Assembly: GCA_006384855.1 (NCBI GenBank)
Contig: VCJN01003029.1
Location: 62,001-126,000, forward strand
Length of the DNA: 64,000 bases
DNA from: Tetraselmis striata
Taxonomy: Eukaryota > Chlorophyta > Chlorodendrophyceae > Chlorodendrales > Chlorodendraceae
Reading direction: 5' to 3'
Each line of letters opens with the position of its first letter. The first letter of the stretch is position 1. The translations under genes were made by a program, and so were the position numbers. The notes beneath the pieces are model-generated. The model did not search any database, was not told the DNA's origin, and saw only the letters and a list, made by a program, of their open reading frames with translations. Below are positions 726-49,700 of this stretch, one piece after another.

Positions 726-3687
726 ATGAAGCGGCGCAGCAGCAGCGCAAGCGGCGATGAGCCGCCGCCGCTCGTGATGACGCTCGGCAGCGGTGGCCCC
801 CCCTCTGCGGGGTACTCGTTCACCCAGCAAGGCAAGACACGCAAAAAGGTGCGTGATGGAACAGCACGCATGCCGCTCTGGCAGAGGCTGCCGAAACCCT
901 AAACCCTATAAAGATGAACCAAAACCGCAAATGCTGTGGTCACTGAAGTACTCGTATTTGCAAATGCTATCATCCGTACAGCATTCCATTTCATATCCAT
1001 TATATCTAACGGTTGTCGTGCGATAAACCCTTTTTAAACCCACATAAACCCTAGCCTATCTACTCGCAAAGTGCTGTACGAGACGGGTACCCAGGTACCT
1101 GTAGTGCCACTTCATTCATATCTCGCTCGGTGTAACCCTTTGGCCCTAATTTGGCACTCTTGTGGCCTTGGCAATGCGAAATCGACCACTGACAAATATT
1201 AACGTGCCTTCACACATTGAAACAACGAACCCAACTAGATACCAGTGAAGAGGACTAAAACTTAGTTTGCATTTTATCGGTAATCTGATGTAGATTTAGC
1301 GGGTCCCAAGAGTAATGTGAATTGGTTTGCGCAGCATCGACTCAGAGTTTCCGTGATAAATGTCACTGTTTTTTGTAGTAGTGACTTCTGAATATAACTT
1401 TTCCTTCTTTGCGAGGGAGGTCAAAAGCAATAATGCGCACCAAACCCACAGCGTGGATACAGCGGGTGTGACGCTGATGTGCGTGAGGAATGAGCCGAGC
1501 ATCGTGGCTGGCTGGCGCTGTAGGGGCGGCCCGTCATCGCCCGCCTGACGACCACCGTGCTGCGCGGCGGCGCGGCGGCCACGACGGGCCCCCGGCTGTG
1601 GGCACCCGCCTCGACGCTGGAGGCGGCGCTGATGTCGGTGGAGCTGCTCGGCGCAGAGGTGGACGGCTGCCTGGCGGGCCTCGTCGCGGAGGTGTCGGGC
1701 GTGAGCGGGGCGACGCTGGCGCTGGGCTGGGAGCGGCTGCCGCAGGACGCGCAGGTGAGTTGGCGGCGTCTCTTGGTAATTTGACAGTATACGGTGAGTC
1801 GGCTCGTATACAGCGCCGGATGGTGTGTAGCGAGGTGGTGTACAATTAGTCGGCTGTGCCCTTCCGCGGGATAGTCGCAAAAAGACAATCGCAGCAAAAG
1901 AGCGATCGCTGTCTACCATCGACGCCTAGTCATGGTTGTGTGGGCACGAGTACGAGGACATAGCGGATGCTGGGGCTCTAGGTGCTGGCTGTGAGGGAGT
2001 TGCTGTGCGTCCCCGGCTTCGCCAACAGCTTCGTCAGCGGAACAATGATGTTATCGAAGTATGCCATCCTTAGGTGGTTGTTACGAGGGGTAGCATGCAT
2101 GCGGTAGTCAGATATATCTGGGGCATAATTTTGTAGCGACAAAATCCTCTGGGTGTTTTGTTGATTTATCAGCAGCATCGGCGGCGGCTTGAAATGCCAC
2201 TGCTGAAACCACTTCCTTTCTCACATCATTAATATATAAAGTTTTGACAATATTATCCGTGAACGACAATATTCGTGAACATCAATAATGATACCCGTAA
2301 TCGTGTCGGCCATTTGCATGTAGTGACTACGGCCACCCCGGTACTGGTTGACCGTGACAAATACCTGCAATGTTACCCAAGCAGATACCCTAAGATCCTC
2401 ACATAAACTAACCCAACACCGCGTCATTGACCCCACTAGACCAAAATAGGACGAACGGCAGCACAGGGGTGCCATCATTCAGCAGACCCAGAACCAACAT
2501 GATGCGTCGTTGAGACCGTAATGGTGGATATTACTGCCGCCGGCCGGCTACTCGCGAGATCTAAGATCTCGCGCTGCTGCCCCTCCGTGCCCGCTTGCGT
2601 AATGCGTAGAGCATGGAGACGATCGCCATTACCTGCGTGACCAGGTACCTGCTCAAGTGGCTCCACCGCGGCAAGTTTCTGCGCCAGAAGCGCGCCGCCG
2701 CCACGCTGCAAAGGTCGGGCAATCCTTCCGCCGTGCGCCACAGTCATCGTGAATGACACGGCATGCTTGAAATCTATTCATCACATCCACCATGCCTGAA
2801 CCACGACGATGCGACAGCAGGGCATCACTCAACGCCGTTTTACTGTACTGAAGGCGGCCTCGGCTGCGGTGTGAGCGGGGCGTGGAACTGACTGTGCACT
2901 GCATCCAGGGTGTGGCGGGGCCGCACCGCCCGCATCCTCACGGATCATATGCGGCAGACTCGGGCCGCCATCGCTATCCGTGCGCATCCCAGCGCCTTAA
3001 CCCCCCCCCCCCCCCCCCCCCCAACAATTGCCTCACCATCAAATCCATGCCCCGCAGTACGTTGTGCCATACAGTTAGTCGCCCTGTCATGATCGCTTAC
3101 CAAGTATTGTCTCTGTGACATTTGTCTCTATCTGCTCACTGGAATCGCGTCCTCTTATAAGTAATGCGCCGTGTGACACTATGCCATACATGTGGTGTTA
3201 CATGTACTCTAAGGCATGTCCGCTCGTGTCATCACTGGCGTGCGCCTGTCATGGATCACCCGCGCATATGCGACACCTTTCTAACTACTGAACGTGCAGC
3301 GCCACCGTCATTTATAGTCACCCATCTCGGGGCTTCTCACCACGTCAATGCCGCACTGAACAAATGGGGGGCATTCCCGCGCTTGTTCTATGTCACTGGT
3401 GGCACTGATGACTGGGGTGGATCGCCGATGGCCGCCTCCTCAGAGCGGCGGGCGCGAGGCATGGAGGCGCGGCGAGCGGTGGACGGAATGCGGAAGGAGC
3501 GCCACCGGCAGGCTGTGGAGCGCGCCGAGGCGCAGCGTTTGTTTGTGAGCCCTGGGGGCACCATTGTCACCATATGTCACCCCAGCTGTAAGCATAGGAC
3601 CACTACTGTGGGCACAATGAACACAATTGCGACCGGAAAGAAGCCAACCGTCTCCATTTGTTTATTCTCTCTCGAGGTGTGTGTGTG

Positions 3688-3723
<36 letters not shown>

Positions 3724-6700
3724 GTTTTAAGCCGCTCTGGCTTTAGGGCATGGTTTTGGAGCTTGTACCATCCCTCCAGTAAACGGGCGGCACTTTGCAT
3801 GGTTTGGGCACCTGCGCAGCATATAAGCCGCGTTCTCCCTATCGCATGCCGAGGCAATCCTCCCTGCTATGGATCATCCTTGGTTGAGATCCGGGCGCTC
3901 GTGGCCTTCCCCTATCTGTTTAACGCTGCTGACGGTGTGCTGTCGCCCATCGTGCGCCGCAGGCTGCCGCCCAAGTCATCCAGGCGATGGTACGCGGCTG
4001 GCTCGCACGCCGCAGGCACTCGGCCTACGTGTCTGGTGCCCCCATGTCGCGCATCTGCTTCTGCGGCAGGCCGCCATTTGGGCAGGTGAGCTCGCCAGCG
4101 CGCCTTATTGCGGCTGGACCCCCAGAATGTTGCCGATTCCGATATATTGCCTAGTGCCTAATGCGAGCCCCAACTTCCGCTCATCCGGCGCAAGGCTTCA
4201 TCGCTCTGTACATACTATTAATGCATACCATTGGACGCTCTCGAAGGTCTGCTATGACTAGTTAGGGCACAGATTCAGCACCGGTCGTACTCCAAACCCG
4301 AAAACCTCCAAACCCTATAGCAACAGTATAAATCTCGAAATGGCCTTGACACATGTGGCCTTGGCACTGAATGTAGCGGTCATTTGGTACAGACTTCGAG
4401 CAGTATCGCATGCAATCGCGAATGGTTGCGCATGATAAATAATACTGTACTGTCATTCACTACACAGTCAAGGCGCTCGGCACTGGGCAGCGCTGCTCCA
4501 GGACATGGCGTTCCTATAGCGGCAAAATTGACCGCGCTATAGTCCACGCTAATGTGCAACTACTTGATATACCAGCGAAAGTATACAGCACCCCGAATTA
4601 CGTGGAATGTCAAAAATAGAGCGAAGCCGTACAGTTTTAGCCCCGCCGATGACAAACTGATGTTAGATATATGTAAGAAGTATATCTACAATAATAGTAG
4701 ATACATAAAATGTAAATTTAATACGAAATTACGAAATATATAAACTGATGCAAGGTCCTCATTTCAGATATTCGATATGGTTTTTGATGGTGCTTCGTTT
4801 TAATACATGCAGTGCGAAGTACTGTCAGCAATATATAAAGCAAAACCGTAGGTGCTTCCAGTGCAAGTACTGCCCGACACAGAAGTGTTTCCTACTAGTT
4901 TGATGATGCCCTGCAACCGTACCGCATGTCGGATTTTTATTTTCGTCCTCTATTTTGGTATAGTGGCATACTGCATAAATTACTAGCTAGCACCGTCACG
5001 TGTACTTCGGGCGCTATTGCTGTAAATGGTAGCCGTCCTACTAGGTTTAGTCTGATGAAGCAGCAGGCACTGCGCTTCTATCTGCACGGTGCTTGAATTG
5101 CTGCGCTGTTTGACGAATTGCGATGTTGCAATGGCGCAATCTGGCAGGTGATCAGCTGCGCGTCATGCTTCGACTTCTACCACGCAGGATGGTGCGCGCC
5201 CCCGCCCACCCCCAGCCCCCTTAAGTCCTCCGCCCCTCTTGCGGCAAGCTCCCCGCTGCGGTTGTAGCTGCGGCCCGCCTACTGAGGAAGGGGACTATCT
5301 TGCACCATGCTGGTCTGCAGCTGCCGCAAAATCCGTTTTGTGTTCCGAAACCACGCAGTGTAACAATCGGGGCGACAAGCGTCTCAGAATCACAACGCCT
5401 GCCACTCGCCGTAACCTCAGGTTCACATCGTAATTGTCACACCAAGCATGCCTAGTTTGCTGCGCATACTGACACATATGGACGCCAATAATAAATAAGG
5501 TCACTGCACTGTCTTCTACACTGTGAGATCATCTATCTACCTGCAAAGTATAGATAGATAAATAAATAGATAACGCTGATGCTTACATCATCAGCATATC
5601 TCAGCATATTCATGCCTACACCGATCCACAAAATCCCGTAAATATTGCGGAATAAAGCAGCAGCACATTGTTGGTCCCCTGCCTATACCCCATGTAAAAC
5701 ACTGCTCCTTGGGTCCGCATGCTGTGTGATAAAGTACGGATGAATTGATATGATAGACTGCATTGCAGGATTTCAATTATTTGACCCTGCATATAAATAT
5801 ATCGCTCCATGATTAGTTACTGGCAGAGTTTATTATGCCTATTCTGTCCATATTATTCAGAGCAAATTGTTCTCCCTTTAATGCAGAGTGTAATATGTTC
5901 ATGCCTGCCGGCCTGGATTCGGCCGGCTTGAACTGTATGTGTTGCCGGGGGACAGCGGCTTAAGCACGCCCCACCAGCCGCTGACGCGCATTCCCCTGCC
6001 CGCGCCAGCCTTGGGCGCAGCACCAGCGCCGGTGTGCCCCTGGGCTGGCTGTGCCCAGAGTGCGTGGAGAAGCGCCGCAAGGCAAAGGCGGCTGCAGCGG
6101 CCGCGGCGCGCTCGCCGTCCCGCGGCGTGCTCGCACAGGGCGCGCTGCTGGAGGTGGGCGCTGGCGCTGCGGCTCCGGCGCGCCCTATGACGCCGCTGGA
6201 CCCCGCCGCGGTCATCGCGGAGCTGGCCGCTCGCGACAAGGCGGCGCAGGCCAAAGCCAAGGCCGAAGCCAACGCTGCCTTGCCGCCAGCAGAAGTCGGC
6301 GCGGAGAGTGTCGGCTTCGCTGGTGTCTCCGGGGAAGTTCCCGCTGATGGCGCCGCCTGTCAAGCCCTTGCTGCAAGCGCCTCCGGCCCCGGCTGCCAGG
6401 ACGAGGCTGGGCCTCGTACGGGGCGGAGCATGCAGAGCACTCGACACCAAGGGACGGCAGGCGCGGGAGCAGGTGATCTGCGCATGTACCCCTGCCCTCT
6501 GGGTATCGGCAGTAGACCGTAATACCCGCGCATGACTCTCGGAGACACAGCCATCATTCTGGTTCGGTGCCCATTGGCGGTGCATCACGCCGGCCAAGGA
6601 ACGGTACGCAGTCGCCAATATGCTTTTGCTACCGGTGCACATCTTAACCCAGCAATTAGCCGTCCACGGTGTGGTCATGTACATCATCAAAGAGTACGTA

Positions 6701-8631
6701 GTCATGTACATATAGGAGTGGTTCACTCGCGGTATCTGCCACGGAATCATTACGCGTCCTGCTCGGTGACCGGCACGCCTGCAGTACTCATAACACCACT
6801 CGATGATGTGCGCTACGGACGTGCGATGCGGTCGCCCCGTGCCCGCACCTTGCCCGTTTGCATTGCTGTTGCTGTGCACGGATTGGGTGGAATAGATTTA
6901 TGTCGCGTAATTGAGATAATAAAATGAATGAAATTTAAAACAAAATGAATGAGATTTAAACTGAATGGCGGAATGGGTGCATCAGGTTAATATCAATGAG
7001 CACATCGCAAAATAATACAAACATCTTTTGTAATGTGCTCATGAATAACTCTGATGCATCCATTCCGCCATTCATTTTGAACTTTATTCTATGTTTTGTC
7101 ACAAAATTGAAATGCAGTAAATTTACGACTGTCTGAGACTAGCGCCTAAGGAGGCCCTGCAAGCAGTGAAATTGCAGTTGACTGGCATATGTGCGCCCTT
7201 TGATGCTGTGCAGGAAATGGGGTTCTTGCTGTTGACCCCGCGGAAGTGTCTGCAGCAGAGCCTCGTGCTGAGGCTGCCGCAGCTGATGCAGTATCCATCC
7301 AGGATGCTGAACACGTCCAAGCGGGAGGGGACGGTGCCGCTAGGGGTCAAACCACGGAGTCTCGACCTGATGGAGGGGGTGACGGACCTGTCGATCATGG
7401 CAAGTTGAAGTCGGGACGTGCCGATGTAGATGCCGATGCTGTTGCTGACACAGCGCCTGGGGCGCGGTTTGGGCGAAGCGCGGTGGAGGTGGTTGTGGCC
7501 GCGAGCGGCGACTCTCCCGCCTCTTCGCCCAAGCCCAAACCTAAGGCGACCGCCTCACGAGCAGCTCGCAACCCCAGCGACTTGATTGCCCTCTCTGCGC
7601 TCGGGAGCTTGTCTTCGCTGCGCAAGACGCCGATGCCTCTGAGCGAGGCTCCGAGTCCGGCGGACGTGCGGCGGCTGCGTGTCATGCGCGGCGTATTGTC
7701 GGCCGGCCCAAGCCGCAAGGGTCGCCGTGGCGAGCGCGGAATAGCGCTCATGCAGCGCCGGGCGACATTTGGCAATGCTACGCATCTGGACGCTGTGGCG
7801 CAGCCCGAAGACGTCGGTGCCGATGGGCCGGCGCTGCAGGCGCTGCTCGCTGACGCGGAGCCTGTCCGGATGCTGTACGTCCCTGACGGCCAGAGCGAGC
7901 GCCTCTCGTCGGCGGCTGATTACATCGCGGAGTCGGCTCGGCGCTGGGGGCTGCCGATGCCTTCAGACAGCACAGATGCAGCTCCGTTACCGCGTGAAGA
8001 AGATCCGTCTGCGGGCGCCATGCACAGCTACACTATGGCGCGGGGGGGAGTGCGTGTGGAGCTGCCGGCAGTGACGAACACACTGCCACCGAGGCCGCCT
8101 TCGAGTGACGACGGAGGTGACGCCGTCACACCGGCGCCGCCTTTGAGCTTCGTGACCTCAAGCGTCGCAGCGGGCAGCGTTCCACCTGGCGAGATCAAGG
8201 TGTTCTACGTGGCGCCATCGTCCACGTCGCACAGGCAGGTGACGCCGGTAGAGGTGCCCAAGGTGGTCGGAGAGAGCGACGGGCAAATCGGGGCGTCCGC
8301 ATCACGTGATGGAACTCGGCAGGGCTCGTCGGACGCGGGCACAAAAGCTATGCCGCCCTTCGAGAGACGGACGGACCTGCCGCAGGGGGCCTCCTTCACA
8401 TCGACGTCAGCACCTCACAATCCAGAGAGCCTACTAGGCCAGGTCGAGAATGTCCCACCCAAGCCGCTCTCTCATGGATCGCCGCTGCCGCCGCTGCGAG
8501 GCCCCACAAGCGTTAGAATAAAGCTGCCCCCTCTAGGTGGCTTACCGATGCCGGCAGCAATGCCAACGCCAACGGACTTGATATTCACCTCCACTGTGCC
8601 GTCACTTCCTCCAATAAATTCTAGGCGATGA
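726..8631 (+). CDS. Multi-exon gene: three IQ motifs plus PHD finger protein
   Basis: Proposed exons: 726-848, 1524-1754, 1982-2073, 2612-2713, 2909-2979, 3444-3544, 3963-4085, 5148-5224, 6021-6472 and 7214-8631, all GT-AG with consistent phase (about 929 aa). Joining exons 4 to 7 yields three IQ motifs near residues 178-191 (LQRVWRGRTAR), 203-217 (IQRRARGMEARR, made only by splicing 2979 to 3444) and 241-257 (VIQAMVRGWLARR). Exons 7 to 9 then form a PHD-like zinc finger: C272-x-C274, C285-xx-C288, H293, C297 and WLCPEC at 316-321. The rest is Ala/Pro/Ser-rich low complexity. IQ motifs bind calmodulin-like light chains and PHD fingers usually read histone tails; having both suggests a calcium-responsive chromatin factor, which is inference. 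Weak points: the first three exons and the start (ATG 726, which follows a good acceptor-like tract, so exons further upstream are possible), the H-xxx-C spacing in the finger, and the acceptor at 6020 versus 6026. Confidence 0.6.
3001..3022 (+). repeat. Poly-C tract, 22 bases
   Basis: Uninterrupted C run, 22 bases downstream of the proposed 5' splice site at 2980 and therefore inside an intron of the IQ/PHD gene. On the sense strand it is poly-C, like the other intronic tracts in this window. Confidence 0.9.
3305..3725 (+). repeat. Segment duplicated at 20.05-20.47 kb (copy 1)
   Basis: This stretch is repeated in inverted orientation at about 20050-20470. Shared text includes the GGCACTGATGACTGGGGTGG block, the coding run with MRKERHR and VERAEAQR, and the downstream TTTGTTTA...CTCTCGAG part. 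It contains the exon 3444-3544 proposed for the IQ/PHD gene, so a piece of that gene has been copied elsewhere, or both copies come from a repeat that supplied the exon. Confidence 0.75.
3677..3723 (+). repeat. (GT)n microsatellite
   Basis: About 23 GT dinucleotides with one GC interruption, in an intron of the IQ/PHD gene. It produces spurious Val-Cys reading frames on the plus strand and Thr-His frames on the minus strand. Confidence 0.95.
6957..7081. mobile_element. MITE-like hairpin in the last intron of the IQ/PHD gene
   Basis: Two arms of about 46 bases, 6960-7005 and 7032-7078, are near-perfect reverse complements (core TGAATGGCGGAATGG, ending GAGCACAT at the loop side), separated by about 26 bases. 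The size, the AT-rich loop and the intronic position fit a miniature inverted-repeat transposable element. No transposase is encoded. A clear target-site duplication could not be fixed by eye because the flanks are themselves AATGAATG-like repeats. Confidence 0.65.
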
Positions 8632-8686: not shown

Positions 8687-8873
8687 TTTTTGGAAGGGCT
8701 GGGCCTCACTCCAGTGAGATGTAATCACAGTACCTGTACATTACAGTGTTTGCTCGAAGTGGTCCCTGCCGCACGTAGTTTTAGGCCAGTCCGAGGTTCC
8801 GGCTCTAGCTTCATCGATAGGTATTCGATATTATCAAAGAGCAGCCAATACCTTAGACCTGACTCCTACTCCT
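8687..8873 (+). repeat. Direct repeat, copy 1 (about 185 bp)
   Basis: Starts just downstream of the IQ/PHD stop codon. It matches 9257-9435 closely, including TTTGCTCGAAGTGG, CCGGCTCTAGCTTCATC and CTTAGACCTGACTC. Copies share orientation and are about 565 bases apart. They could be a tandem duplication of the gene's 3' flank or the ends of a small element. Confidence 0.8.
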
Positions 8874-9256: not shown

Positions 9257-9435
9257 TTTTTGGAGGGGCTGGGACACACTCAATGGACATGTAACCACAG
9301 TGCATGACAGTTTTTGCTCGAAGTGGACCCTGCCCCACAGTAGTTTTAGCCAGTCCGAGGTGCCGGCTCTAGCTTCATCAATAGGTGTTCGATATTATCG
9401 AAGAGCAGCCAATGCCTTAGACCTGACTCGAAACG
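9257..9435 (+). repeat. Direct repeat, copy 2 (about 180 bp)
   Basis: Partner of 8687-8873, with scattered substitutions and small indels. The 380 bases between the copies hold no recognisable gene. The region 9436-9820 that follows also shows nothing I can identify. Confidence 0.8.
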
Positions 9436-9837: not shown

Positions 9838-10075
9838 TTCACGACCACAGCATAGATAGAAGCATATTTTATTGAGCCGGACACTGAACCGCGCGGTGCG
9901 CGCGAATGTACCCCGGTCCTCGCTCTCCCTGCGCCCCTCGCGGGGCGCGTGTAACCTAGCGTCCTACCCGCATTACCTAGGGCTTACACGCCCAGCCGCG
10001 CGGTGCAACGATATATCGTTTGAAATATTCAAATATCCAACACTGACATTTGCCGCAGTCGCCGGGCGCGAGGTC
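9838..10075 (+). repeat. Left inverted repeat arm of the tnp2-type element
   Basis: Pairs with 15795-16045 as reverse complement. Shared runs include TATTGAGCCGGACAC, AATGTACCCCGGTCCTCG, ACCTAGCGTCCTACCCGCA, GGGCTTACACGCCCAGCCG and GCAGTCGCCGGGCGCGAGGT, with small indels between them. Confidence 0.85.
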
Positions 10076-10457
10076 GGTGATGGAATCACCCTGGACAGCT
10101 ACTACGGACGGTTGATGTCTAGTACTTAACGGGCAGCGGGTCCCGGGTGCTGACATACTTGTCCCATTTGTCGTCTCCTACTCACGCCCGTACGTACCAA
10201 CTGCCTCGGGTAGCCGAATGTACTTCATCTCTCCAGTAGGATGTGCGTCGCTGATATTGTGGTGATACGCTACTTATCCTTTTAAACTTCACCGCGCTCG
10301 CGGGCGGACATCACCACAACACAACGTCAGAGCCGCCGTCGCAGGGTGGGCCACCGGCCGCGGGCGGGCCACTGAAGCCACCGGGATCGACACGTCAGCC
10401 GCGCCGCCATGCGGGGCAGCGGAATGTACGGATGCAGATTCCAGGCGATCGCGTGGG

Positions 10458-15618: not shown

Positions 15619-15794
15619 TTGATTATAGTACTTAGTAGTACATTCCAGTAGGTAAGCGCTTTAGTCATGCACCTATAGGCCCGATCCGCAGTATACGGGT
15701 ACCCGTACGGCAATAAAGCTCACCGCCGAAAAATCGACGTTTCGCTGGATCATCGCGAGCGCGTTCTTATTTTCTGCTCTTTGAATTTGAACTC

Positions 15795-16045
15795 CTACCT
15801 CGCGCCCGGCGACTGCGGAAAATGTCACTGTTGGACATTTGAATATTTGAAACGATACATCGTTGCACCGCGATATCGTTGCACCGTGCGGCTGGGCGTG
15901 TAAGCCCTAGCTGTGCGGGTAGGACGCTAGGTTATACGTGCCCCGCGAGGGGCGCTGGGAGACCGAGGACCGGGGTACATTAGCGAGGTCAGCACCGCGC
16001 GGATCGGTGTCCGGCTCAATAATAAATGCTTATGTGGTCGTGAGA
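15795..16045 (-). repeat. Right inverted repeat arm of the tnp2-type element
   Basis: Reverse complement of 9838-10075. It includes ACCTCGCGCCCGGCGACTGC, CGGCTGGGCGTGTAAGCCCT and GTCCGGCTCAATA. Small differences include a duplicated ATATCGTTGCACCG motif on this side. Confidence 0.85.
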
Positions 16046-16046
16046 A

Positions 16047-16545
16047 GACACGTTTATTCACACACTGGTTCGCGTAGGTCCGCGTTTCTGAAGACCGTAA
16101 ACGGGTCTCAAATCCGAGATGTGTAGCTGGCAACGCTTTTTGGCTACGTGGCACGCGCTACGTGCGTAATATTAGCACGTGACCGCTCGCGCTCCTCCCT
16201 CATCATCCCGCCGCCAGCCCCATCCCCGCCCGCGACACACAAGACGATGCACTTGAACGCCACCATATGCCTACGTTAGCGTGTTGCTACCGCGGTGTGC
16301 GCGTCATGGTGCCGGCCGGTGTGTCTGGTTGGCATCGTTGGGGCGTGATGGGTTGGCGAGACGGGTGGTCACGTGGGCTCTGAGTTTTGATGAAATGACA
16401 TTATATTTGACTGTGTCAACCGGATACTATAAATCACTACTCATACTCGTTTCGGTAGTTGCGTCTCAGGATTGTGACCTCGCTATACACAGCTTCAACC
16501 CCGGGAAGATTTCATTTAGCGAGTAGCCGGGGAACCGGTGTGCAT
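16047..16545 (+). repeat. ~490-bp dispersed direct repeat, copy 1
   Basis: Matches 21765-22262 in the same orientation over almost its whole length, roughly nine bases in ten identical by eye. Shared runs include AACGGGTCTCAAATCCGAGA, GGCACGCGCTACGTGCGTAA and GGGTTGGCGAGACGGGTGG. It contains no credible gene. It abuts the right arm of the tnp2-type element and may be an element end. Confidence 0.85.
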
Positions 16546-16639
16546 ACTTCCATGCCTCCGGTACGAGGTTACTGATTGATGCGCGTGTCGCGCGCTGCGG
16601 CGCGGCGCCCGAGCGATGCTGGCTTGTAATTATAAATTA

Positions 16640-16949: not shown

Positions 16950-18015
16950 CCCGTCGGCGGCCGCGTAACACCTTCAACCAGGTATCGTTCTAAATGCTTG
17001 CCCCTATTATGGGACCATTATGATACTTACTTTTGTGAAAGCCCTTATGTAATAAAAAAATCGATTATGATACTTACATATAGTGATAAATGACGATTTT
17101 CAATTCCAATATTGGTGCTACTTCTCCGGTGCGAATGCAGCGTTTGTAATGATGAATTTCTCCCTCAGGCAGCACACGCAGGAGAAAGGGCTATTTCTCT
17201 TTTCCCTTTCTTTTCATCTTCAACATTATCTTTAGGGCTATTAAGTATCATAAAGTGCATTCAGGTAGCGCACTGTCGATCGAGGTAGCGACTTTCGGGC
17301 GTCGCCAGGCGATGTGGCTTTCTCATCGGCATTTTATCCGTTGCGTTATCGTATAGAGTTCGGTAATGGAAGAAATGCAGCAGGTAGAGATTTCCGCATT
17401 TTTTACGGTTGTGAATTTCATAGTTGTGAATTTCTTAGCTGTGTATTTATTCGCCATTTCGGTATTAATTATTGTAAACCCATTATTGATTAACCCCGCC
17501 CGCATTAGGTGCCGTACTAAATTCCGGCGCGCGTGTCACCCATAGTTTTTCATGAGCACGAGTAGGGATGATGAATACCGGTAGGTAGTTGTATAAATAT
17601 ACCCATCGCATGGTGTATTAATAGTTAATCACTGATTCTCCCTGCGGTCCGAGTGACCGTACCTGTAGCTTGCTATCGAGCCAGATCATCGTCTGTAGTT
17701 AACGCTAGTGCCCGGCCCGCTGCCCCAGCCCCTGTACATGATGAGGGAAGCAGCGGCGCTGGAGTGCTCAGCATCAATCGCACGGTACTGGTATACCTCG
17801 TAGCAACAGTGGCAGTGCGCTGAGTCCCGCGCCTGCCGCCGACCGCGGTCGACGAGCGGTCCGTATGGCAGCGACTACCTGCTGAAAGGCTTCATGCGCA
17901 TGCCCACCATTTCTTCGTTTATCCGCCCCGATAGCACAACAAACAAGCTGACCTGCAGGAGGCACAAGCGCTCAAAAGACACACATACACGATCAAAGTG
18001 ACCACAGGACACACT
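16950..18015. other. AT-leaning intergenic stretch, no gene seen
   Basis: Low-complexity, AT-richer DNA with short imperfect repeats (GATTATGATACTTAC, GAATTTCATAGTTGTGAATTTC). Bases 17700-18015 become GC-richer and are the likely promoter and 5' leader of the EF-hand gene. No RNA gene was recognised. Confidence 0.4.
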
Positions 18016-19341
18016 ATGGTAGCTATTTCAGCCAACTATGACGAGCCGCAGCTCTTCTGCGAGCACCTCGCGCTGTGGCGCTATGCGCGGCGGGGTGTAA
18101 TCTACGACGCCGGAGCGACCCTCTTCCGCCCCGCGGACTTCGCCGGCAAGGGCAGTGCAACGCTTGACGCACTGCGAGAGGCCCTCAAAAGCTGCAAGTG
18201 GTGTTTCTTTGGTATCGGCGAGATCGACGACCTGCTGGTTCACGTAGGACCCGCCAAGATTGTTAAACAGGAAGCCTTCTGCGACGCTTTTTGCCGCTTC
18301 GTTGCGTCGTCTATCAAACCCAAGCCCAACAATAAGACTACCCGCGCCGAGCTGCCGGTGCGGTCAAGGCTGCGACAGCGCTCGGAACCGAACGATGTGT
18401 GCTCAAGGGCACCTGCGCTCGGCAGGGCTACCGCAGTCCCTAGGCGTGCGGCCAGCGATTCTGGGACTGGCGCTATGGCGCCTTCTGAGCCCTCACCGAC
18501 GACTCGGCACTACGTCTCGTTTTCCGCCTCGCCGATGACATCCGCTCGCCCATCTTCACCCGAGTCCCTACCACCGGTCGCCTCGCGCTCCGAAGGACGC
18601 CTCCCGGTCTTCATGAAGGCGGCGCGGGGCCGACATCACTCGAGTGCAGCAAGCGTATGCTCTGCGCAAAATCGTAACCCCGGCGCGACCTCCTGCATTA
18701 GCGTCTCATCGACACGCAGCAAGCACGGGGTCATCCGGTCGTCGCAAGTCGTGGGCGGTAATGCCGCTCTGAACATGCGATCCAACAGTAGCGCCTTTCG
18801 TGCAACACGGGTCACCAAAAAGTCTATGAAGGAGTACTTCAGCATCTTCAAGGGCATGACGGTGTCCAGCAGCAGAACTGTCTCCATGGCTGACTTTGAG
18901 ACACACATGGCGCGCGCGGCGCCCGATCTGCTGCCGTACGCACAGCGCATGTACACCACCGCCTGCAAGCGGGGCTCCAAGGCTGCCAATGAGCTCAACT
19001 TTGAGAGCATGCTGCGCGTGCTGCTCCCATCAGCCACCAAGGCCGATGTGCACGAGCTGATGGAAATGGTGATGGACCGTACCACCAACAATGGCCCCAC
19101 ACCCCAGCAGGTGGATGACGCCAACACCATTTTCAAGTTGTGGAACAAAAGTGGCGACAATTTGCTGACATTTGACGAGATGGAGCATGGCCTAGAGGCG
19201 ATGAACGTGTCGGAGGAGGATATGGACGAGTGGCTGGAGCAACTATTTGGCGTCGAGGGCACGCCCGACTGCCGCACCTGTGTGAGCCCCGGAGATTTTA
19301 AGTCGTGGTTCACCAGGCACGCTGGCGAGCTTTCCCTGTAA
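18016..19341 (+). CDS. EF-hand calcium-binding protein, intronless
   Basis: Open frame of 441 aa from ATG 18016 to TAA 19341. The frame extends a few codons upstream without another ATG. Residues 1-100 form a compact, probably globular domain (EHLALWRYARRGVIYDAG, CKWCFFGIGEIDDLL) I do not recognise. Residues 100-260 are Ser/Pro/Arg-rich and likely disordered. The C-terminal 170 residues are helical. Residues 377-388 (NKSGDNLLTFDE) fit the 12-residue EF-hand calcium loop, with ligands N, S, D, T and E at positions 1, 3, 5, 9 and 12. A preceding helical pair (FSIFKGMTV...DFETHM) and a C-terminal segment (DCRTCVSPGDFKSWF) look like degenerate EF-hands. It is probably a calcium sensor; partner unknown. 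TGTAA, a common algal poly(A) signal, overlaps the stop. Confidence 0.75.
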   Translation: MVAISANYDEPQLFCEHLALWRYARRGVIYDAGATLFRPADFAGKGSATLDALREALKSCKWCFFGIGEIDDLLVHVGPAKIVKQEAFCDAFCRFVASSIKPKPNNKTTRAELPVRSRLRQRSEPNDVCSRAPALGRATAVPRRAASDSGTGAMAPSEPSPTTRHYVSFSASPMTSARPSSPESLPPVASRSEGRLPVFMKAARGRHHSSAASVCSAQNRNPGATSCISVSSTRSKHGVIRSSQVVGGNAALNMRSNSSAFRATRVTKKSMKEYFSIFKGMTVSSSRTVSMADFETHMARAAPDLLPYAQRMYTTACKRGSKAANELNFESMLRVLLPSATKADVHELMEMVMDRTTNNGPTPQQVDDANTIFKLWNKSGDNLLTFDEMEHGLEAMNVSEEDMDEWLEQLFGVEGTPDCRTCVSPGDFKSWFTRHAGELSL

Positions 19342-20049
19342 ATGCAATAGCACCAGCCGCTACTAGGCCCCATCGTTGTTACCGCTAAGGCATTGGACTA
19401 GGATTAGTTTTATTTTAAAACACTTCTGAGATCAATTTGTAACTTTATAGTTCTCACTTCGCATCATTTGAGCAATTTCATTTGATTTACTGAGGTCTAC
19501 ATGCCGCCACTCTCGCACAATCCATACACCGTTGTGAACGCACAAAGTGAAGCTGGGGGCGCCTGATAGCGCACAAGCACAAACGGTCCGCGGATAAATA
19601 TCGTTTTTGTCCCCCTCCCCCCTCACCGCGAAGAGGAAAACGGGGAATGACGTCAAAATAAATCATGAATACATCACGAATATTATGACACAAAGGTGCA
19701 TAAGGATTGATAGCATTTGACCCCAAGGACCGTAGCTAACTCTACAGTATATTTTGAATGCTTTGATTCAAAGATGTGTTGTTGCGAACAAAGAAGTAAC
19801 AGTGGTACACCTCATCCATGCTGTCCACATATAGTGCAGTGCGGTTTGCGCAATGATGGAGAGTCGAATATTAACTACTGGTGATGTATAACGCTATTAC
19901 ACATGATAATGAATGGCCTTGTCTCGCAGCCTGACGGAGAGGGGGGGGGGGGGGGGGGGGGGAGCCTGCCTCGGCTTCATGCCGGAAGGCTCCTGGGTGG
20001 TGGCTTTACTTATCGACCAGACCTCAAAAGTCGGCTTCGAAACCGAACA
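19342..20049. other. Intergenic: dispersed repeat and poly-G
   Basis: No gene seen. Bases 19560-19740 resemble 56370-56500 (GCACAAAC-GTC-GCGGATAA, then AATACATCACGA-TATT), marking another copy of that dispersed repeat. A 22-base poly-G lies at 19941-19962. Segment copy 2 of the IQ-gene duplication begins at about 20050. Confidence 0.5.
19941..19962 (+). repeat. Poly-G tract, 22 bases
   Basis: Uninterrupted G run in intergenic DNA, close to the start of the duplicated IQ-gene segment at 20.05-20.47 kb. Confidence 0.9.
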
Positions 20050-20523
20050 AATAACACATCCCTCGAGAGGGATTAAACAAACAAATAGGGACGGTCTGCT
20101 TCTTCTCAATTGAAGTTGTGCTCACTGCGCCCATTGTAATTGAAATTGACATTGCGCCCGAAGTAGTCACGCTTTCAGTTGCGGCGACATATGGTGGCAA
20201 TGGTGCCCTCCGGGGCTATGAAGTAAGCGCTGCGCCTCGGCGCGCTCCACGGCCAGCCGGTGGCGCTCCTTCCGCATGCTGTCCACCGCTTGCCGCGCCT
20301 CCATGCTGCGCGCCAAGCGCTCTTAGGAGGCGGCCATTGGCGATCCACCCCAGTCATCAGTGCCCTCAATGACAAAGAACAAGCGCAGGAATGTTCCCCT
20401 CTCCCTATTGATCAGTGCAGAATTGATACTTGACGAGAAGATCAAATGAAGCTGGGGCACTGCGCTATTGAGCAACCAGCCAGGGCGGACCTTGATGTTG
20501 AGCTGGTACGCGCGCTTGGTCAT
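20050..20523 (-). pseudogene. Duplicated fragment of the IQ/PHD gene region (copy 2)
   Basis: Inverted copy of 3305-3725. On the minus strand it reads FFVIEGTDDWGGSPMAAS, a stop, then the counterpart of the IQ exon (SMEARQAVDSMRKERHR, VERAEAQRL). The reading frame continues upstream to about 20523 (TKRAYQLNIKVRPGWLLN) beyond the similarity I can follow. The in-frame stop and the lack of neighbouring exons make it a dead fragment. Confidence 0.6.
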
Positions 20524-21764: not shown

Positions 21765-22262
21765 GACGTGTATAAATATACACACCGGTTCGCGTAGGTA
21801 CTCGTTTCTGAAGACCGAAAACGGGTCTCAAATCCGAGATGTATAGCTGGCAACTCTTTTTGGCGACGTGGCACGCGCTACGTGCGTAATATTAGCACGT
21901 GACCGCTCGCGCTCCTCCCTCATCATCCCGCCGCCAGCCCCATCCCTGCCCGCGACACACAAGACGAGGCACCTGAACGCCACCATATGCCTACGTTAGC
22001 GCGCTGCTACCGCGGTATGCGCGTGATGGTGCCGGCCGGTGTGTTCGATTGGCATCGGTGGGGCGGGATGGGTTGGCGAGACGGGTGGTCACGTGGGCTC
22101 TGAGTTTTCATCAAATTACGTTATATTTGACTGTATCAACCGGATACTAATCACAATTCGCGCTCGTTTCGGTAGTTGCATCTCAGGATTGTGACCCCGC
22201 TATACACAGCTTAAACCCCGGGAGGATTTCATTTAGCGAGTACCCGGGGAACCGGTGTGTAT
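21765..22262 (+). repeat. ~490-bp dispersed direct repeat, copy 2
   Basis: Partner of 16047-16545 in the same orientation. The match ends around CCCGGGGAACCGGTGTG at both places, a sharp common edge suggesting an element boundary. Confidence 0.85.
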
Positions 22263-22269
22263 ATTACGC

Positions 22270-33899: not shown

Positions 33900-35810
33900 C
33901 CACGCGCCTCGCCGCCCACTGCCGCGCGCCGCCCGCTCACTGCTGGCACTGCCGCGCGCGCTATCATCAGGCAAGAGCGCAGCAAAATTGTCAGGCTTCT
34001 AGAGGCAGATCCCGGATAGACCACCCCGGATATTGAGTTGCGCGATGACGAGTGATATATGCGTCTGATGCAGTTATTACGAGTCTCACGGAATGACTAC
34101 ATACGAGTTTCATGATACTGGTAAGATTACATGATGAATACAGCGGGTTATTACAATCTATATTTACGAAGTGATCCGGGAACCTTGTGGACCCGCCCCC
34201 CCCCCCCCCCCCCCCGGCGCGATGCGAGTGTCTGCGGAAGCAAAACCACAGCTAGGTGGCCGCAACTTATTATTTGCGGCGTCTTTGCAGGCGCGTTTAC
34301 ACCAATGTACGTCAAGACGTCTCCAAGCAATTGCCCGCGAAGTGGGCATCACTCGGATTTCTAGCCTTTCGGGCCGAAACACGCTCGTGCAGTTGATGGG
34401 GGACGCGTAATTCAGTGCACCATTGATCGCGATAGTTGGCCAGCATCGGGTCTGCCGTGCGTGAGGATGCCATGGACGCGTACTCGTCCTACCCCACTTC
34501 GATGTCTGTCATTCAACTCTTTCATTCATGGTTGCCATATAAAGCTATGTTCAATCTGCTTCCGGGCATTAATGGTTGGGCAGTAATGAAAAGGCGAATC
34601 AACACAGGGCTCCCGGCCTCATTTGATTTCGTTGTTGTTTGCGGCTGGCGTGAATTTCCCATAAGGCCCCATTAGCATCATCCCCCAAAAAATCATCCGG
34701 CAGGAATGATCTGCCATGTGTAAACGACGTCTTCGCCACAATGCGCCGGATCCGAGGCGCGAGCAATCCGATGGCAAGCCGAAGCGCGAGGTGCACCGGC
34801 CGGACTACGCCCGCGTATAACTGTGTGATATCGATAAAAAACAAAAAGCTGTGTGGTATCGTAGGTGTACTGGTTCCACACTTCCACCACTATACATCAT
34901 CCAATCATTGATATTTTTAAAAGTCGCAGAAAGCGGTGCCCGTTATACCGAATTGCGAATCCGTACCGCCGTACCCGGGCTACTGGCGGGTGGTGTACGA
35001 ATTGTACGGACGATTGGGACGATACTTATTTTCGGCACTACCCGTACCTCCTGTGATGAAACCCTAAACCTTAATACTGGATGAATATCGGAGTGTGCGA
35101 GACTGTGTGACCGCCATATTGTGCGGCTACTGTACAAGCAGTCATGCCATGGGCGGCGGCATGGAACAAATCGAGCAGTAGAATAAAATCTAGAGATATT
35201 TTCGGACAGTAAGGTACACATCGCACCGTATAATTTCGGTGTAAAATATCGACTTTGGCAGCTTGATGGGATATAGCATCATGTGTGGCCTAGTATTAAT
35301 CCTTACCTGTCAGCACCCACTCACACGTAGTAATGCATCATACATATAGAACGATACATTATATATGATATGCATTGAGCGTAAATGCATGTATTCACAT
35401 ATTATATCCATCTACAGATATATATGTATCTATTAAATATGGCGCGTTCTGCTGACGACGCTATCTTCGCGTACGGTACCTTGTACGATATACCTGTTGG
35501 ATATGCCCACAAGACCTTAATATCACCGCTCGCGCGCCCGGCGCCAACTACACCCGTCGTATTGGTACGGACGTCCTCCCAGCACGCCTGGCGTGATAAC
35601 GTCACCCCGCTTAAGCCCTTCGGCATCAGCAGACCGCCGAGAAGCAACGCACCTTTTGACGTGGTCGGGCACGAACCTCATCTAGGATTCTGCGCCTGGG
35701 CTGTCGGACCCAGTCCCTTCCCGCAGCTTTGAAGTGCTTGCTGTAGGTCCACTTGGCTCGTTTCGCCTCGTGCACACCGTCCGCCATTCTATCCATCCGG
35801 CGGACTGCTG
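33900..35810. other. Gene-poor stretch before kinase 1
   Basis: Contains the poly-C tract 34196-34215, AT-rich patches (34850-34930, 35330-35440) and one CCCTAAACC telomere-like unit near 35060. No convincing exon recognised. The last 300 bases are GC-richer and presumably hold the kinase 1 promoter. Confidence 0.35.
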
Positions 35811-37004
35811 ATGTCCCCACTCGTGTGTTTCGGCCGGTACGGAAAGGGGGGCGACTGTCTGCCAGCGGACGAGCCCCTGCCGCGGCGAAGGAGCCTGCAG
35901 CAAGTAACGGGATTCGATCCTGATGAAGAAATCCGCCATGCCAGGCGTAAAGGCGCGGGTATGCCGGAGAAGGGAGTGCCGTCCGGGAGCAGCTCGTCAG
36001 TGACCGCAACTTCACGTTTTGCTCGGCCCGACCCCCCCGGGCGAAGCGACGACCCTCCTGAAACAGTCACCGCGAAGTCGATCCGTACTGGCCCTGACGG
36101 CCTCAGCACCACCGAGGTCAACCTATCTTATCGAATCGGGCGCGGGGCTTTTGCGACCGTGCATCTGGGCGAGACGAGCTGCAGCGAGAGGGTATCGGTG
36201 GCCGTGAAGGCGATACGGTGCTCGTCCGCCGCGGACGCCGCTGCTGCTCGCCGGGAGCTCAAACTGGGCAAACTGCTCGCGTCTCGGCCGGCGTGCCGAT
36301 TCCCTGCCGTGCTGGGCAGCGACTTTACGGTCAAGCCCGGGCGTAATGCTCACGTGTACATAACCTACGAGCTGCTGCGCGGCGGCACGCTTGAGCAGCT
36401 GCTTCACTCTCGGCGCCGCCTGAGCGAGGCGGATGCTAGGCAGGTGACTTTCGAGCTGTTCTCCGCGTTGGCAGCCACTCACGCGGAGCGGGTTGTTCAC
36501 TCAGATATCAAGCCTGGGAATGTGATGTTCGCTACCCCAGGAGATCTGAAATCATTGCGAATCATCGACCTGGGGCTTGCGACGGACTTGTCGCTGGCCT
36601 CTCGCTCCGTCGACGTCGGCGGGACACGGGACTACTTCTCGCCGGAGCAGGTTCGGACCTGGTACAGCGGCAAGCCGGGGTTTGGTTTGCCGACGGACGT
36701 TTGGTCCGCGGGGGTAGTAGCGTACGAGATGCTTTGTGGGTCGCCGCCGTTCTCGGCGCGCAAGGCCAGCAAGCTGCTTCACCAGATATGCCTCACGGAA
36801 CCTGGCTTCTCTGGACCGAGCTGGGAAGGTGTGAGTTCACAAGCCAAGGACTTTGTGCGGAAAGCAATGGTGAAGGACCCCTCCCGCCGCATGACGGCAA
36901 AAGCAGCGCTCCGGCACCCATGGCTGCGTGAAGTTGGGTCAGACGCTTCGCATGCTGGGGGCTGGCTTGCGAAGCTAACTCGCCTGGGTGCGCACAAGTG
37001 CTGA
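35811..37004 (+). CDS. Protein kinase with atypical HSD and DLG motifs, copy 1
   Basis: Intronless frame of 397 aa from ATG 35811 to TGA. Residues 1-105: N-terminal MSPLVCFGR, basic RRRSLQQ, then low complexity. Kinase domain about 107-373: Gly loop GRGAFATV at 110-117, catalytic Lys133 (VAVK), HSDIKPGN at 230-237 in place of HRD-x-K-x-x-x-N, DLG at 253-255 in place of DFG, SPE at 278-280 in place of APE, DVWSAGVVAYEM with Asp296, and RR at 359-360. Lys, catalytic Asp, Asn and metal-binding Asp are all kept, so it is probably active, most like CAMK/calcium-dependent Ser/Thr kinases in layout. Upstream RRxS could be a phosphosite. A paralog lies at 44027-45151. Substrate unknown. Confidence 0.9.
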   Translation: MSPLVCFGRYGKGGDCLPADEPLPRRRSLQQVTGFDPDEEIRHARRKGAGMPEKGVPSGSSSSVTATSRFARPDPPGRSDDPPETVTAKSIRTGPDGLSTTEVNLSYRIGRGAFATVHLGETSCSERVSVAVKAIRCSSAADAAAARRELKLGKLLASRPACRFPAVLGSDFTVKPGRNAHVYITYELLRGGTLEQLLHSRRRLSEADARQVTFELFSALAATHAERVVHSDIKPGNVMFATPGDLKSLRIIDLGLATDLSLASRSVDVGGTRDYFSPEQVRTWYSGKPGFGLPTDVWSAGVVAYEMLCGSPPFSARKASKLLHQICLTEPGFSGPSWEGVSSQAKDFVRKAMVKDPSRRMTAKAALRHPWLREVGSDASHAGGWLAKLTRLGAHKC

Positions 37005-43214: not shown

Positions 43215-44026
43215 ACTATAGTTAGCATGTATGCACCTGCAGCCGGCGTTATCCTCGCCCATGCATGCGCTTTGCGATCGAAAATGCAAAACCCGGACTT
43301 ATGTGGAGGGGTGTATTTTTACAGTCAGTTAGGCTTACTTAATAAGCACTGAAGCCGCTGCGATATCGGCAGCAGCCGCTGGCACTCGTCTGTCGTCGCC
43401 ATATCGCTGTGGCACTGTACAGATATATTATATGGCGACCATATACACATCAAATCTTGATTTTTGCAGCTAGCGCACATGTATTAATCATATACTCATA
43501 AAATACTGCGCAATACAGTTCCAATGAACAGAAAACTTAGTTCGAAAAATATCTGATGTCTCGCCCGTTCGTCCGTTGTGTTTCTTAGGCCTTTCTATCG
43601 ACCTACTCGCCACATGTCCCTTAGTTATTTATAATATGTTCAGCTGCACCTTGGCATGCGTCAGCATCCCATACGAAAGGATTTTTTGCTCCTAGATCTT
43701 CCGTACGGATTCGTACCACACAATCATCATACCCCTGCATCAAGCCGGCAGGCCCGTGCAGGGCGAATACTAGCCGCTTATATCCACCCGGCCCGGTACC
43801 TGTCTACGATACCGGCACGACGTCGTCAATACATGCATGTCCAGGTACCTCACTGTGGTAGCTCCGAGCAGCTATCGAATGTCCACATAATCCAACTCCC
43901 CACCTCAACCCTATATTGCACCCTTTCTCAGCTAGGAGGTCAGAGCAGCATCCCTCCCCCCCTTGCGCCGTTTTCGAGTACCCTCTTACCCGCCCCTGTC
44001 CAGACTTCAGCGTGCAATCTGTCACT
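43215..44026. other. Intergenic region upstream of kinase 2
   Basis: AT-rich to about 43640, then CT-rich sequence leading into the kinase start, presumably promoter and 5' leader. No other gene seen. Confidence 0.35.
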
Positions 44027-45151
44027 ATGTCGCCGCTTGCGTGCTTTGGCCGGGCCTGCTTCCCCGCTCGGGACGGCACGCTCCCCCGCCACAAGAGTGT
44101 CCATCAAATTGCGCACTATGACCCCGAGGCCCTGTTTGCCGACATTGCCGCCGAGAAAGCGCACGGCAGCCACGCCGCAAGGCCTGTATCCGAAGTCAGC
44201 GATGGCTCTGTACAGAGCCTGGTTCGCGCCGAGTCTACTGCCAGCACAACCTTCGAATCCGAAATCGAAGTCGAGCTGTCTGGTGACAGTGAGCTCGTCC
44301 CTCTGACCCGTCAAGGCTCTTCCTCCGTTGTTCACGTGGAGCGGCCTAGCACGAGCGGCAGCGCTGTCGCGGTAAAGGAAATTCCATGTACCACTTCCGA
44401 GGAGGAGGCAGCCGCTAGCCGCGAGCTAGAGTTGGGCCGGCTGCTATCGTCGCGGCCTGAGTGCCGTTTCCCGGCCGTACTTGACAGCGACTTCTCGGGC
44501 AGGCCCGGTCCTGACGGCCACGTGACGATCACGTACGAGCTTCTCCAGGGCGGCACCGTGGAACAGCTACTGCGGAAGCGACGTTTGAGCGAGGGCGAGG
44601 CGAAAATCATCGCTCACGCGCTTTTCTCCGCACTGGCGGCGATTCATCGCGAGGAGGTAGTCCACTCTGATATCAAGCCTGGTAACCTTATGTTCGCCGA
44701 GGCGGGGTCGTTGGCCTCGCTGCGGGTTGTGGATCTTGGCCTGGCGGCCCTACGTTCAGTGTACCGCTCGGCGGACGTGGGCGCTCTGTCCGCCTACTCT
44801 TCACCTGAGCAGGTGCGGACAAAGTACACAGGCGTTCCCGGGTTCGGCACCGCTTCCGACGTCTGGTCCGCGGGCGTTGTCGTTTTCGAGTTGCTTTCCG
44901 GAAAGGCGCCCTTCAAGTCCCGGAACGTGGAGAAAATGCTACAACAGATTCTGGCGTCGCAGCCCAGCTTCGCCGCGCTGTCCTGGGAGCTTGTCAGCGA
45001 CGAGGCGAAAGATTTCGTTGAACGCGTGATGCATAAAGATCCCGCAAGGCGCCTTACTGCAAAGGCAGCCCTGAAGCACGCGTGGCTGGCTGGCATCGAC
45101 TCGAGAGGCAGCAAGAACGGCCTGCTGTCCAAGCTCATGCGCCGCAAGTAG
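44027..45151 (+). CDS. Protein kinase with atypical HSD and DLG motifs, copy 2
   Basis: Intronless, 374 aa from ATG 44027; the frame is open further upstream, but this ATG reproduces the MSPLxCFGR start of the paralog at 35811. N-terminus: MSPLACFGRACF, LPRHKSVHQ (aligned with LPRRRSLQQ in copy 1), acidic Ser-rich linker to about residue 90. Kinase domain about 91-355: Gly loop degenerate (TRQGSSSVV, 94-102, lacking the GxGxxG pattern), Lys117 (VAVK), HSDIKPGN at 213-220, DLG at 236-238, SPE at 259-261, DVWSAGVVVFEL from Asp278, RR at 341-342. Catalytic residues are kept but the poor Gly loop suggests weaker ATP binding or altered regulation. Clear duplicate of copy 1, 8 kb apart, same strand. 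Confidence 0.9.
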   Translation: MSPLACFGRACFPARDGTLPRHKSVHQIAHYDPEALFADIAAEKAHGSHAARPVSEVSDGSVQSLVRAESTASTTFESEIEVELSGDSELVPLTRQGSSSVVHVERPSTSGSAVAVKEIPCTTSEEEAAASRELELGRLLSSRPECRFPAVLDSDFSGRPGPDGHVTITYELLQGGTVEQLLRKRRLSEGEAKIIAHALFSALAAIHREEVVHSDIKPGNLMFAEAGSLASLRVVDLGLAALRSVYRSADVGALSAYSSPEQVRTKYTGVPGFGTASDVWSAGVVVFELLSGKAPFKSRNVEKMLQQILASQPSFAALSWELVSDEAKDFVERVMHKDPARRLTAKAALKHAWLAGIDSRGSKNGLLSKLMRRK

Positions 45152-48369: not shown

Positions 48370-49700
48370 GATTCACGCAGCTGGTCGGCGCTAACCGGCC
48401 ACCGTTGTCTACCGCCCTTGCCCAGGCTACCCACGCAGTCGGTGGGAGCCATTAAGCCGCCATTGCACGCAGCTGGTCGGCGCCAACGGGCCGCCACTGC
48501 ACCATGTGCCCCGGTTGCCCTTGCAGCCCGGGCACGCAGCTTGTCGGCGCCACCACCCTGTCACTGCGCCATGTGCCGTGGTCGATTCCGCAGCCCTAGC
48601 ACGCAGCTGGTTGGCGCCAACGGGCGGGCCCCCCTCACTACACCATATGCCCCGGTTGCCCCTGCAGCCCGGGCACGCATCTGGTCGGCGCCAACAAGCC
48701 GCCACTGCATCTTGTGCCCCGGTTGCTCTCACAGCCCGAGCAAGCAGTTGGTCGGCGCCAACGTACCGCCGCTTCACCATTCATGTGCCCCGGTTACTTC
48801 ACAACCTAGGCCCGCAGCTGGTCGGCGCCATCTGGCCGCCACTATACCATGTGCCCCGGTTGCCCTTGCAGCCCGGGCACGCAGCTGGTTGGCGCCAACT
48901 GGTCGCCACTGCACCATGTGCCCCGGTTGCCCTTGCAGCCCTGGCACGCAGCTTGTCGGCGCCACCACCCTGTCACTGCCCCATGTGCCGTGGTCGATTC
49001 CGCAGCCCTAGCACGCAGCTGGTCGGCGCCAACGGGCCGCCACTGCATTTTATGCCCCGGTTGCTCCCACAGCCCTAGCACGCAGCTGGTCGGCGCCAAC
49101 GGGCCGCCGCTTTAACATTCATGTGCCCCGGTTACTTCGCAGCCCGGGCATGGAGCTCATCGGCGCCAACGGGCCGCCACTGCACCTTGTGTACCGGTTG
49201 CCCCGGTTGCCCCGCGACCCGCATGGTGCCCCTGCAGCCAGGGCACGCGGCTGGTCGGCGCCATGACGCTGTCACTGCGCCATTTGCCCCGGTCGCTTCC
49301 GCGGCCCGGGCAAGCAGCATGATGTAAGCGCCAAGAGGGTAACGATCCGCCACTGCGCCATCATCCCTGTTTGCTCTTGCCGCTAGAGCACGCAGCAGGT
49401 CGGCACCACGGGGCTGCCTCAGCACATTGTGCCCTGTCACTTCCGCAGTCCTGGCATGCAGTTGGTCGACGCCAACGGCCCGCCACTCCCAAGCTGTGCC
49501 CCGCCGGGTACTTCGCAGCCCGGGCACGCAGTTCGTTGCCACCGACAGACCGCAGCTGCACCTTGTGCCCGGGTTGCTTCCACAGCCCGAGCAAGCAGTT
49601 GGTCAACGCCGATGGGCCGTCACTCCACCCTCTGGCCAGGTCGCTCCTGCGCTTCCGGCATGCAGTCGGTCGGCAACATCAGGCCACTGCCGCACCCCTC
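48370..49700 (+). repeat. GC-rich minisatellite, 67-bp unit, about 20 copies
   Basis: Unit begins GCTGGTCGGCGCCAACGGGC and ends CAGCCCGGGCACGCA. It is repeated head to tail with a variable middle (CCATGTGCCCCGGTTGCCCT or GTGCCGTGGTCGATTCCGC). Because 67 is not a multiple of three, repeats rotate through reading frames and create long spurious Pro/Ala/Cys-rich frames on both strands. No unique spacers, so it is not a CRISPR array. Confidence 0.9.

What the first reader, a model, noticed from the sequence alone, without database searches (positions are those of the whole stretch)
726..8631. A predicted IQ-motif plus PHD-finger protein
Splicing by signal and phase alone rebuilds three IQ motifs and then a PHD-type C-x-C, C-xx-C, H, C, C-P-x-C finger spread over three exons. 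One IQ motif (IQRRARGMEARR) and the finger exist only after splicing, which argues the model is real. IQ motifs bind calmodulin or related light chains and PHD fingers read histone tails; I know of no common protein class with tandem IQ motifs directly before a PHD finger. A calcium-responsive chromatin reader would be new.
Basis: partly seen in the sequence, partly recalled or inferred. Interest (0 to 1): 0.75.

Follow-up and report, generated by a model that had tools for sequence, protein, structure and literature searches.

The report
Algal-type protein with IQ and PHD
A real-looking, intron-rich gene appears to encode calmodulin-binding-type motifs placed directly before a zinc finger of the kind usually found in chromatin proteins; the combination is unusual, but nothing yet shows that the finger reads histones or responds to calcium.

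Summary
Ten phase-consistent exons (726-8631, nine GT-AG introns) give 917 aa with three consensus IQ motifs (aa 176, 201, 241) and then one complete C4HC3 PHD finger (aa 267-309), both above Pfam cut-offs, the PHD only just in the full protein. IQ motif 3 and the finger's first C-x-C share one uninterrupted exon (3963-4085). Shuffles gave the PHD pattern in 1 of 600 and both upstream IQ motifs in 0 of 400. The 'calcium-responsive chromatin reader' is not shown: the cage Trp of methyl-K4 readers is Phe here, and IQ motifs commonly bind calcium-free calmodulin (recalled). The IQ array resembles the myosin-5 neck most, but no motor domain precedes it in the window. A plausible 3' splice site lies just before the proposed ATG, so the protein may begin upstream. 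No homologue and no paper on IQ-PHD proteins was found, but eukaryotic protein databases were not available. Verdict: probably a real gene with an uncommon pairing of two ordinary domains; most likely a platform loaded with calmodulin-type light chains that carries a PHD docking finger.

The parts
726..848 (+). exon 1 of the model (aa 1-41); possibly an internal exon starting at 723 in phase 0
   Evidence: phase, GC3 0.83; the AG at 721-722 scores in the top 2.4% of AG sites with a matrix trained on nine other acceptors of the model
1524..1754 (+). exon 2 (aa 42-118), no recognised domain
   Evidence: GC3 0.97; donor GTGAGT; no Pfam hit for frame 1524-1781
1982..2058 (+). exon 3 (aa 119-143); 3' end uncertain (weak donor)
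2612..2713 (+). exon 4: degenerate IQ-like helix from aa 153 and the LQ start of IQ motif 1; 5' end uncertain (weak acceptor; 2610 is an alternative if exon 3 ended earlier)
2909..2979 (+). exon 5: rest of IQ motif 1 and the start of IQ motif 2
   Evidence: its donor at 2980 is weak
3444..3544 (+). exon 6: rest of IQ motif 2 (IQRRARGMEARR)
   Evidence: codon CAG split c|ag at the junction; decayed copy on the minus strand at 20171-20393
3963..4085 (+). exon 7: IQ motif 3 and the first C-x-C of the PHD finger in one exon
   Evidence: IQ 23.9 bits, cut-off 20.3, in the unspliced frame 3933-4154; single-sequence model, mean pLDDT 79.4, helical over residues 3-24
5148..5191 (+). exon 8: C-xx-C-x4-H of the PHD finger
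   Evidence: its acceptor is weak by the small matrix
6009..6472 (+). exon 9: completes C291 and holds the last two Cys of the PHD finger (WLCPEC), basic KRRKAK stretch, start of the low-complexity tail; an acceptor that starts the exon at 6021 also gives a PHD pattern
7214..8631 (+). exon 10: low-complexity C-terminal tail and TGA stop
   Evidence: open frame; no Pfam hit; single-sequence model mean pLDDT 39.6

Best explanation
It is a real spliced gene of a eukaryote, probably a green alga. It encodes a protein, or the C-terminal 917 residues of a longer one, in which an array of three consensus IQ motifs plus one degenerate one is followed at once by a canonical C4HC3 PHD finger, a basic stretch and a long, probably disordered tail. 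Shown by sequence: reading frame, domains, their order. Inferred: the IQ helix is loaded with calmodulin or a calmodulin-like light chain (centrin, CML), which stiffens it and may move with calcium; the PHD finger is a protein-docking module, most likely in the nucleus as for most PHD proteins, so that light-chain binding next to the finger could tune its access to a partner. Reading of methylated H3K4 is not predicted by its residues.
For: Phase-consistent ten-exon model and GC contrast of exons and introns; Pfam IQ and PHD above cut-offs; eight zinc ligands in PHD spacing; the best-matching solved sequences for the finger are TAF3 and ING1, E 2e-6 and 7.6e-6; for the IQ array the myosin-5A neck, E 8.6e-7; IQ motif and start of the PHD in one exon; shuffle controls; basic stretches RKKGR at 39 and KRRKAK at 312.
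Against: No transcript. No homologue, whose collections are prokaryotic, viral and phage. The full-length PHD score only just passes its cut-off. Four of the splice sites are weak by the small matrix: acceptors 5148 and 2612, donors 2980 and 2059. The decayed exon-6 copy shows no clear sign of purifying selection. Nuclear location and light-chain binding are inferred.
Confidence: 0.55

Rival explanations
1. Calcium-responsive chromatin reader: the PHD finger binds a histone H3 tail and calcium-calmodulin on the IQ array switches this binding.
For: Both domains present and adjacent; the best-scoring solved fingers, TAF3 and ING1, belong to histone readers (recalled); basic stretches. The lack of an acidic residue does not exclude H3 binding, since passages of PMC5415848 say that fingers binding bent or extended H3 lack it too.
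Against: The Trp that marks methyl-K4 readers is Phe (F286 against TAF3); no acidic residue between C267 and C283, so it is not of the helical-H3 class of PMC5415848 (passages); IQ motifs often bind calmodulin without calcium (recalled).
Confidence: 0.12
2. Cytoskeletal or ciliary IQ scaffold, in which the PHD-type finger is a structural or protein-docking zinc module outside the nucleus.
For: The IQ array aligns best with the myosin-5 neck over about 100 residues; methyl-K4 Trp absent.
Against: Only IQ and PHD-type families matched the 917 aa at E up to 10; PHD fingers are mostly nuclear (recalled).
Confidence: 0.22
3. C-terminal part of a larger protein (for example with a catalytic or motor domain) whose first exons lie upstream of the window. 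This can be true together with the best explanation.
For: The AG at 721-722 before the ATG scores in the top 2.4% of AG sites; possible donors upstream of it are at 17 (top 6% of GT sites) and 588 (top 4.3%).
Against: The 149 aa before the IQ array match no Pfam family and no PDB chain, so a myosin motor does not directly precede them; both possible donors are unremarkable; the ATG at 726 is usable.
Confidence: 0.4
4. Chance or pseudogene: IQ and PHD patterns assembled by free choice of splice sites.
For: A single-exon IQ match is expected about once per window by chance, and the 3-exon PHD pattern arises in 1 of 600 shuffles with any GT/AG; at least one upstream IQ joins in phase in 15 of 400 shuffles with unrestricted sites; several splice sites are weak; exon 6 has a decayed copy elsewhere.
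Against: 0 of 400 shuffles give both upstream IQ motifs under either site rule; GC-rich exons with GC3 0.64-0.97 and AT-richer introns; ten exons without a frameshift or stop.
Confidence: 0.04

Closest known systems
PHD fingers of TAF3 and ING1/ING4
   Same: best sequence matches among solved structures; the TAF3 alignment keeps C-xx-C-x4-H-xx-C and W-x-C-xx-C and basic residues after the finger
   Different: Phe in place of the Trp before Tyr-His; TAF3 and ING have no IQ motifs (recalled)
Myosin-5A neck (IQ array)
   Same: alignment over aa 153-254; 25 residues between IQ motifs 1 and 2
   Different: no motor domain found in the visible protein, 40 residues before IQ motif 3, PHD finger instead of coiled coil and globular tail
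CAMTA transcription factors (recalled)
   Same: IQ motifs in a nuclear regulator
   Different: no CG-1, TIG or ankyrin match listed at E up to 10; PHD finger instead
Plant IQD (IQ67) proteins (recalled)
   Same: three IQ motifs, basic protein
   Different: IQ starts 25 and 40 residues apart, not the fixed IQ67 spacing (recalled); IQD proteins have no PHD (recalled)

Membership tests
IQ-motif protein | [FILV]Qxxx[RK]Gxxx[RK], Pfam IQ above cut-off | tested here: met
   three motifs; 29.2 bits against 20.3
IQ-motif protein | binds calmodulin or a light chain | not testable with these tools
   needs protein
PHD finger | eight ligands C4HC3 in PHD spacing with W two before the seventh | tested here: met
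   C267 C269 C280 C283 H288 C291 C306 C309, W304 (and the sequence)
PHD finger | Pfam PF00628 above cut-off | tested here: met
   24.6 bits against 24 in the full protein, only just; 31.3 in the segment
H3K4me3-reading PHD | Trp in the C-xx-C-xx-W-Y-H position | tested here: not met
   Phe in the TAF3 alignment; the conserved Trp as a mark of methyl-K4 readers from passages of PMC5415848, its exact column recalled
[quoted passage not shown]
   no D or E between C267 and C283; definition from passages of PMC5415848
Any histone-tail-binding PHD | measured binding to a histone peptide | not testable with these tools
   needs protein; lack of the acidic residue does not exclude bent or extended H3 binding (passages)
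Myosin | motor domain directly before the IQ neck | tested here: not met
   no Myosin_head listed at E up to 10 and no PDB match for aa 1-149 at E up to 10; sequence upstream of the window not seen
RING-variant (RINGv) | Pfam RINGv match | tested here: not met
   not among the matches listed up to E 10; HMMER filters drop most above 0.1

The most novel reading that the evidence does not exclude
A new class of algal nuclear protein in which calmodulin-type light chains on a lever-like IQ array directly gate a PHD finger, so that a calcium signal changes what the finger binds on chromatin.
Probability: 0.12. Interest if true: 0.7.

Novelty: new variant of a known kind. Interest (0 to 1): 0.38.

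Why it matters
If the architecture is conserved and the finger binds chromatin, it would be a direct physical link between calmodulin-type signalling and a chromatin docking module in one polypeptide, a link usually made through kinases or CAMTA-type factors (recalled). As it stands it is a well-supported gene model with an uncommon pairing of two common domains.

Tried and rejected
Myosin with a PHD tail: considered because the IQ array aligns best with myosin-5A (4 of 4 listed sequences; 4 of 5, the fifth a chance match at E 0.54). Rejected for the visible part, since aa 1-149 match no PDB chain and no Myosin_head is listed. A term search in two myosin surveys, of which I saw passages only, counts 0 occurrences of 'PHD' in the main text (PMC3942036; PMC2375034); figures are not held.

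Minus-strand frames over the locus (5902-6897 and 1299-1925): no Pfam match, taken as shadow frames of GC-rich exons.

Selection test from the decayed exon-6 copy: 13 differences in 101 exon bases (codon positions 1, 2, 3: 4, 3, 6) against 7 in 72 of the intron-5 flank, and 9 in 49 and 25 in 99 of the intron-6 flank. This shows no clear purifying constraint and is uninformative about the gene itself.

Homologue searches gave nothing: genome contigs twice, viral contigs, phages. Literature: searches found 0 papers. Searches listed 1, 7, 4 and 15 (of 20) papers; no listed title or abstract start names an IQ-PHD protein. Of these I saw passages of four (PMC11231147; PMC3942036; PMC2375034; PMC5415848); the others were not opened.

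Full report
The window is eukaryotic by its introns. No genome is held for it, and no tRNA and no Rfam family at gathering score was found. Green-algal origin is inferred from CCCTAAA-type repeats (for example 380-393), GC-rich codons and a TGTAA at 8720 (that TGTAA is the green-algal polyadenylation signal is recalled). The organism was not identified.

Gene model. Ten exons from 726 to 8631 join in phase over nine GT-AG introns of 195-1062 bases and give 917 aa without a stop. Exons are 0.57-0.79 GC with GC3 0.64-0.97, introns 0.46-0.58 GC; in exons 6, 9 and 10 GC1 exceeds GC3. Uncertain points, by a small matrix trained on the model's own sites: acceptors 5148 and 2612 are matched or beaten by 13% and 12% of all AG sites, donors 2980 and 2059 by 10% and 9% of all GT sites. 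2610 is an alternative acceptor to 2612 if exon 3 ended earlier. An exon start at 6021 instead of 6009 keeps the finger pattern. The AG directly before 723 is a fair acceptor (top 2.4% of AG sites), with only unremarkable donors upstream (17, top 6%; 588, top 4.3%), so exon 1 may or may not be internal.

Domains. Pfam finds IQ (three stretches, 29.2 bits, cut-off 20.3) and PHD (24.6 bits, cut-off 24) in the full protein; segments score 40.9 and 31.3 bits. The eight zinc ligands C267 C269 C280 C283 H288 C291 C306 C309 and W304 fit a PHD finger. IQ motifs start at aa 176, 201 and 241. A degenerate IQ-like segment from aa 153 aligns with an IQ motif of the myosin-5A neck.

Chance. With any GT and AG allowed and introns of 60-1300 bases, the three-exon PHD pattern appears at this locus on the plus strand (two variants), not on the minus strand, and in 1 of 600 shuffled windows; with GTGNG/YAG sites in 0 of 40 and GT/NAG in 0 of 10. 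Both upstream IQ motifs joined in phase to exon 7 appear in 0 of 400 shuffles of 2400-3962 under each of two site rules; at least one appears in 2 of 400 (restricted) and 15 of 400 (unrestricted). A lone single-exon IQ match is expected about once per window (mean 0.95 in 60 shuffles) and is weak evidence alone.

What the finger is. Its best matches among solved structures are TAF3 and ING1 (E 2e-6 and 7.6e-6; 106 sequences up to E 1, 60 shown). In the printed TAF3 alignment the Trp before Tyr-His is Phe here. Passages of PMC5415848 name a conserved Trp as the mark of methyl-K4 recognition (its exact column is recalled) and an acidic residue as the mark of helical-H3 binders; the finger has neither. 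The same passages say that fingers which bind bent or extended H3 also lack the acidic residue, so H3 binding is neither predicted nor excluded.

What the IQ array is. The best solved match is the myosin-5A neck (E 8.6e-7; myosin-5 again). No motor is found in the 149 aa before it. IQ motifs commonly hold calcium-free calmodulin (recalled), so a calcium response is a guess. The tail after the finger is rich in A, G, P and S (0.49), and exon 10 folds with mean pLDDT 39.6 as a single sequence, which is consistent with disorder but no proof, since single-sequence models are often poor.

Mechanism. Most likely a light-chain-loaded helical platform that carries a PHD docking finger, probably nuclear. 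The reading frame and domains are shown by sequence; light-chain binding, nuclear place and any coupling between the two are inferred.

Novelty. Known domains, uncommon order. No paper on an IQ-PHD protein was recognised in the listings (open-licence library only), and no homologue was found (prokaryote, viral and phage collections). Eukaryotic proteomes and InterPro were not searchable, so the order may already be listed there.

Noticed in passing
window 20171-20393 (-), alignment extends 20044-20440: A decayed partial copy of intron 5 - exon 6 - intron 6 of the gene, 86.5% identical over 223 nt; the donor GT has become CA, the acceptor CAG has become AAG (AG kept).
   Followed up: yes
window 35733-37001 and 43862-45148 (+): Two protein kinase frames without introns over the kinase domain (Pkinase 6.5e-49 and 5.2e-41), sharing a repeat of 81 nt at 75%; the best PDB matches of the first are calmodulin-dependent kinases.
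   Followed up: partly
window 17935-19338 (+): A 468-aa frame with EF-hand matches below the Pfam cut-offs. In all, 20 frames of the window were scanned for neighbours, of 207 of 100 aa or more.
   Followed up: no
window 16060-16546 and 21780-22263; 9901-10086 and 15785-15985: Dispersed repeats, each in two pieces: direct copies 90-94% alike, and inverted copies 89-93% complementary, perhaps mobile elements.
   Followed up: no
window 51681-52016 and 52423-52766: Long inverted repeat in three pieces, arms 87-91% complementary, 406 nt between the innermost arms.
   Followed up: no
window 6955-7081: Self-complementary stretch of about 124 nt, 79% identical to its own reverse complement, inside intron 9.
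   Followed up: no
window 48465-49203 and 58867-59184: Minisatellites of 67 and 24 bases; the second reads in one frame as a Pro-Thr-Ala repeat.
   Followed up: no
window 8687-8865 and 9257-9429: Repeat of about 180 nt directly after the gene, 86% identical; each copy holds a TGTAA (8720, 9290), the first of which could be the polyadenylation signal.
   Followed up: partly
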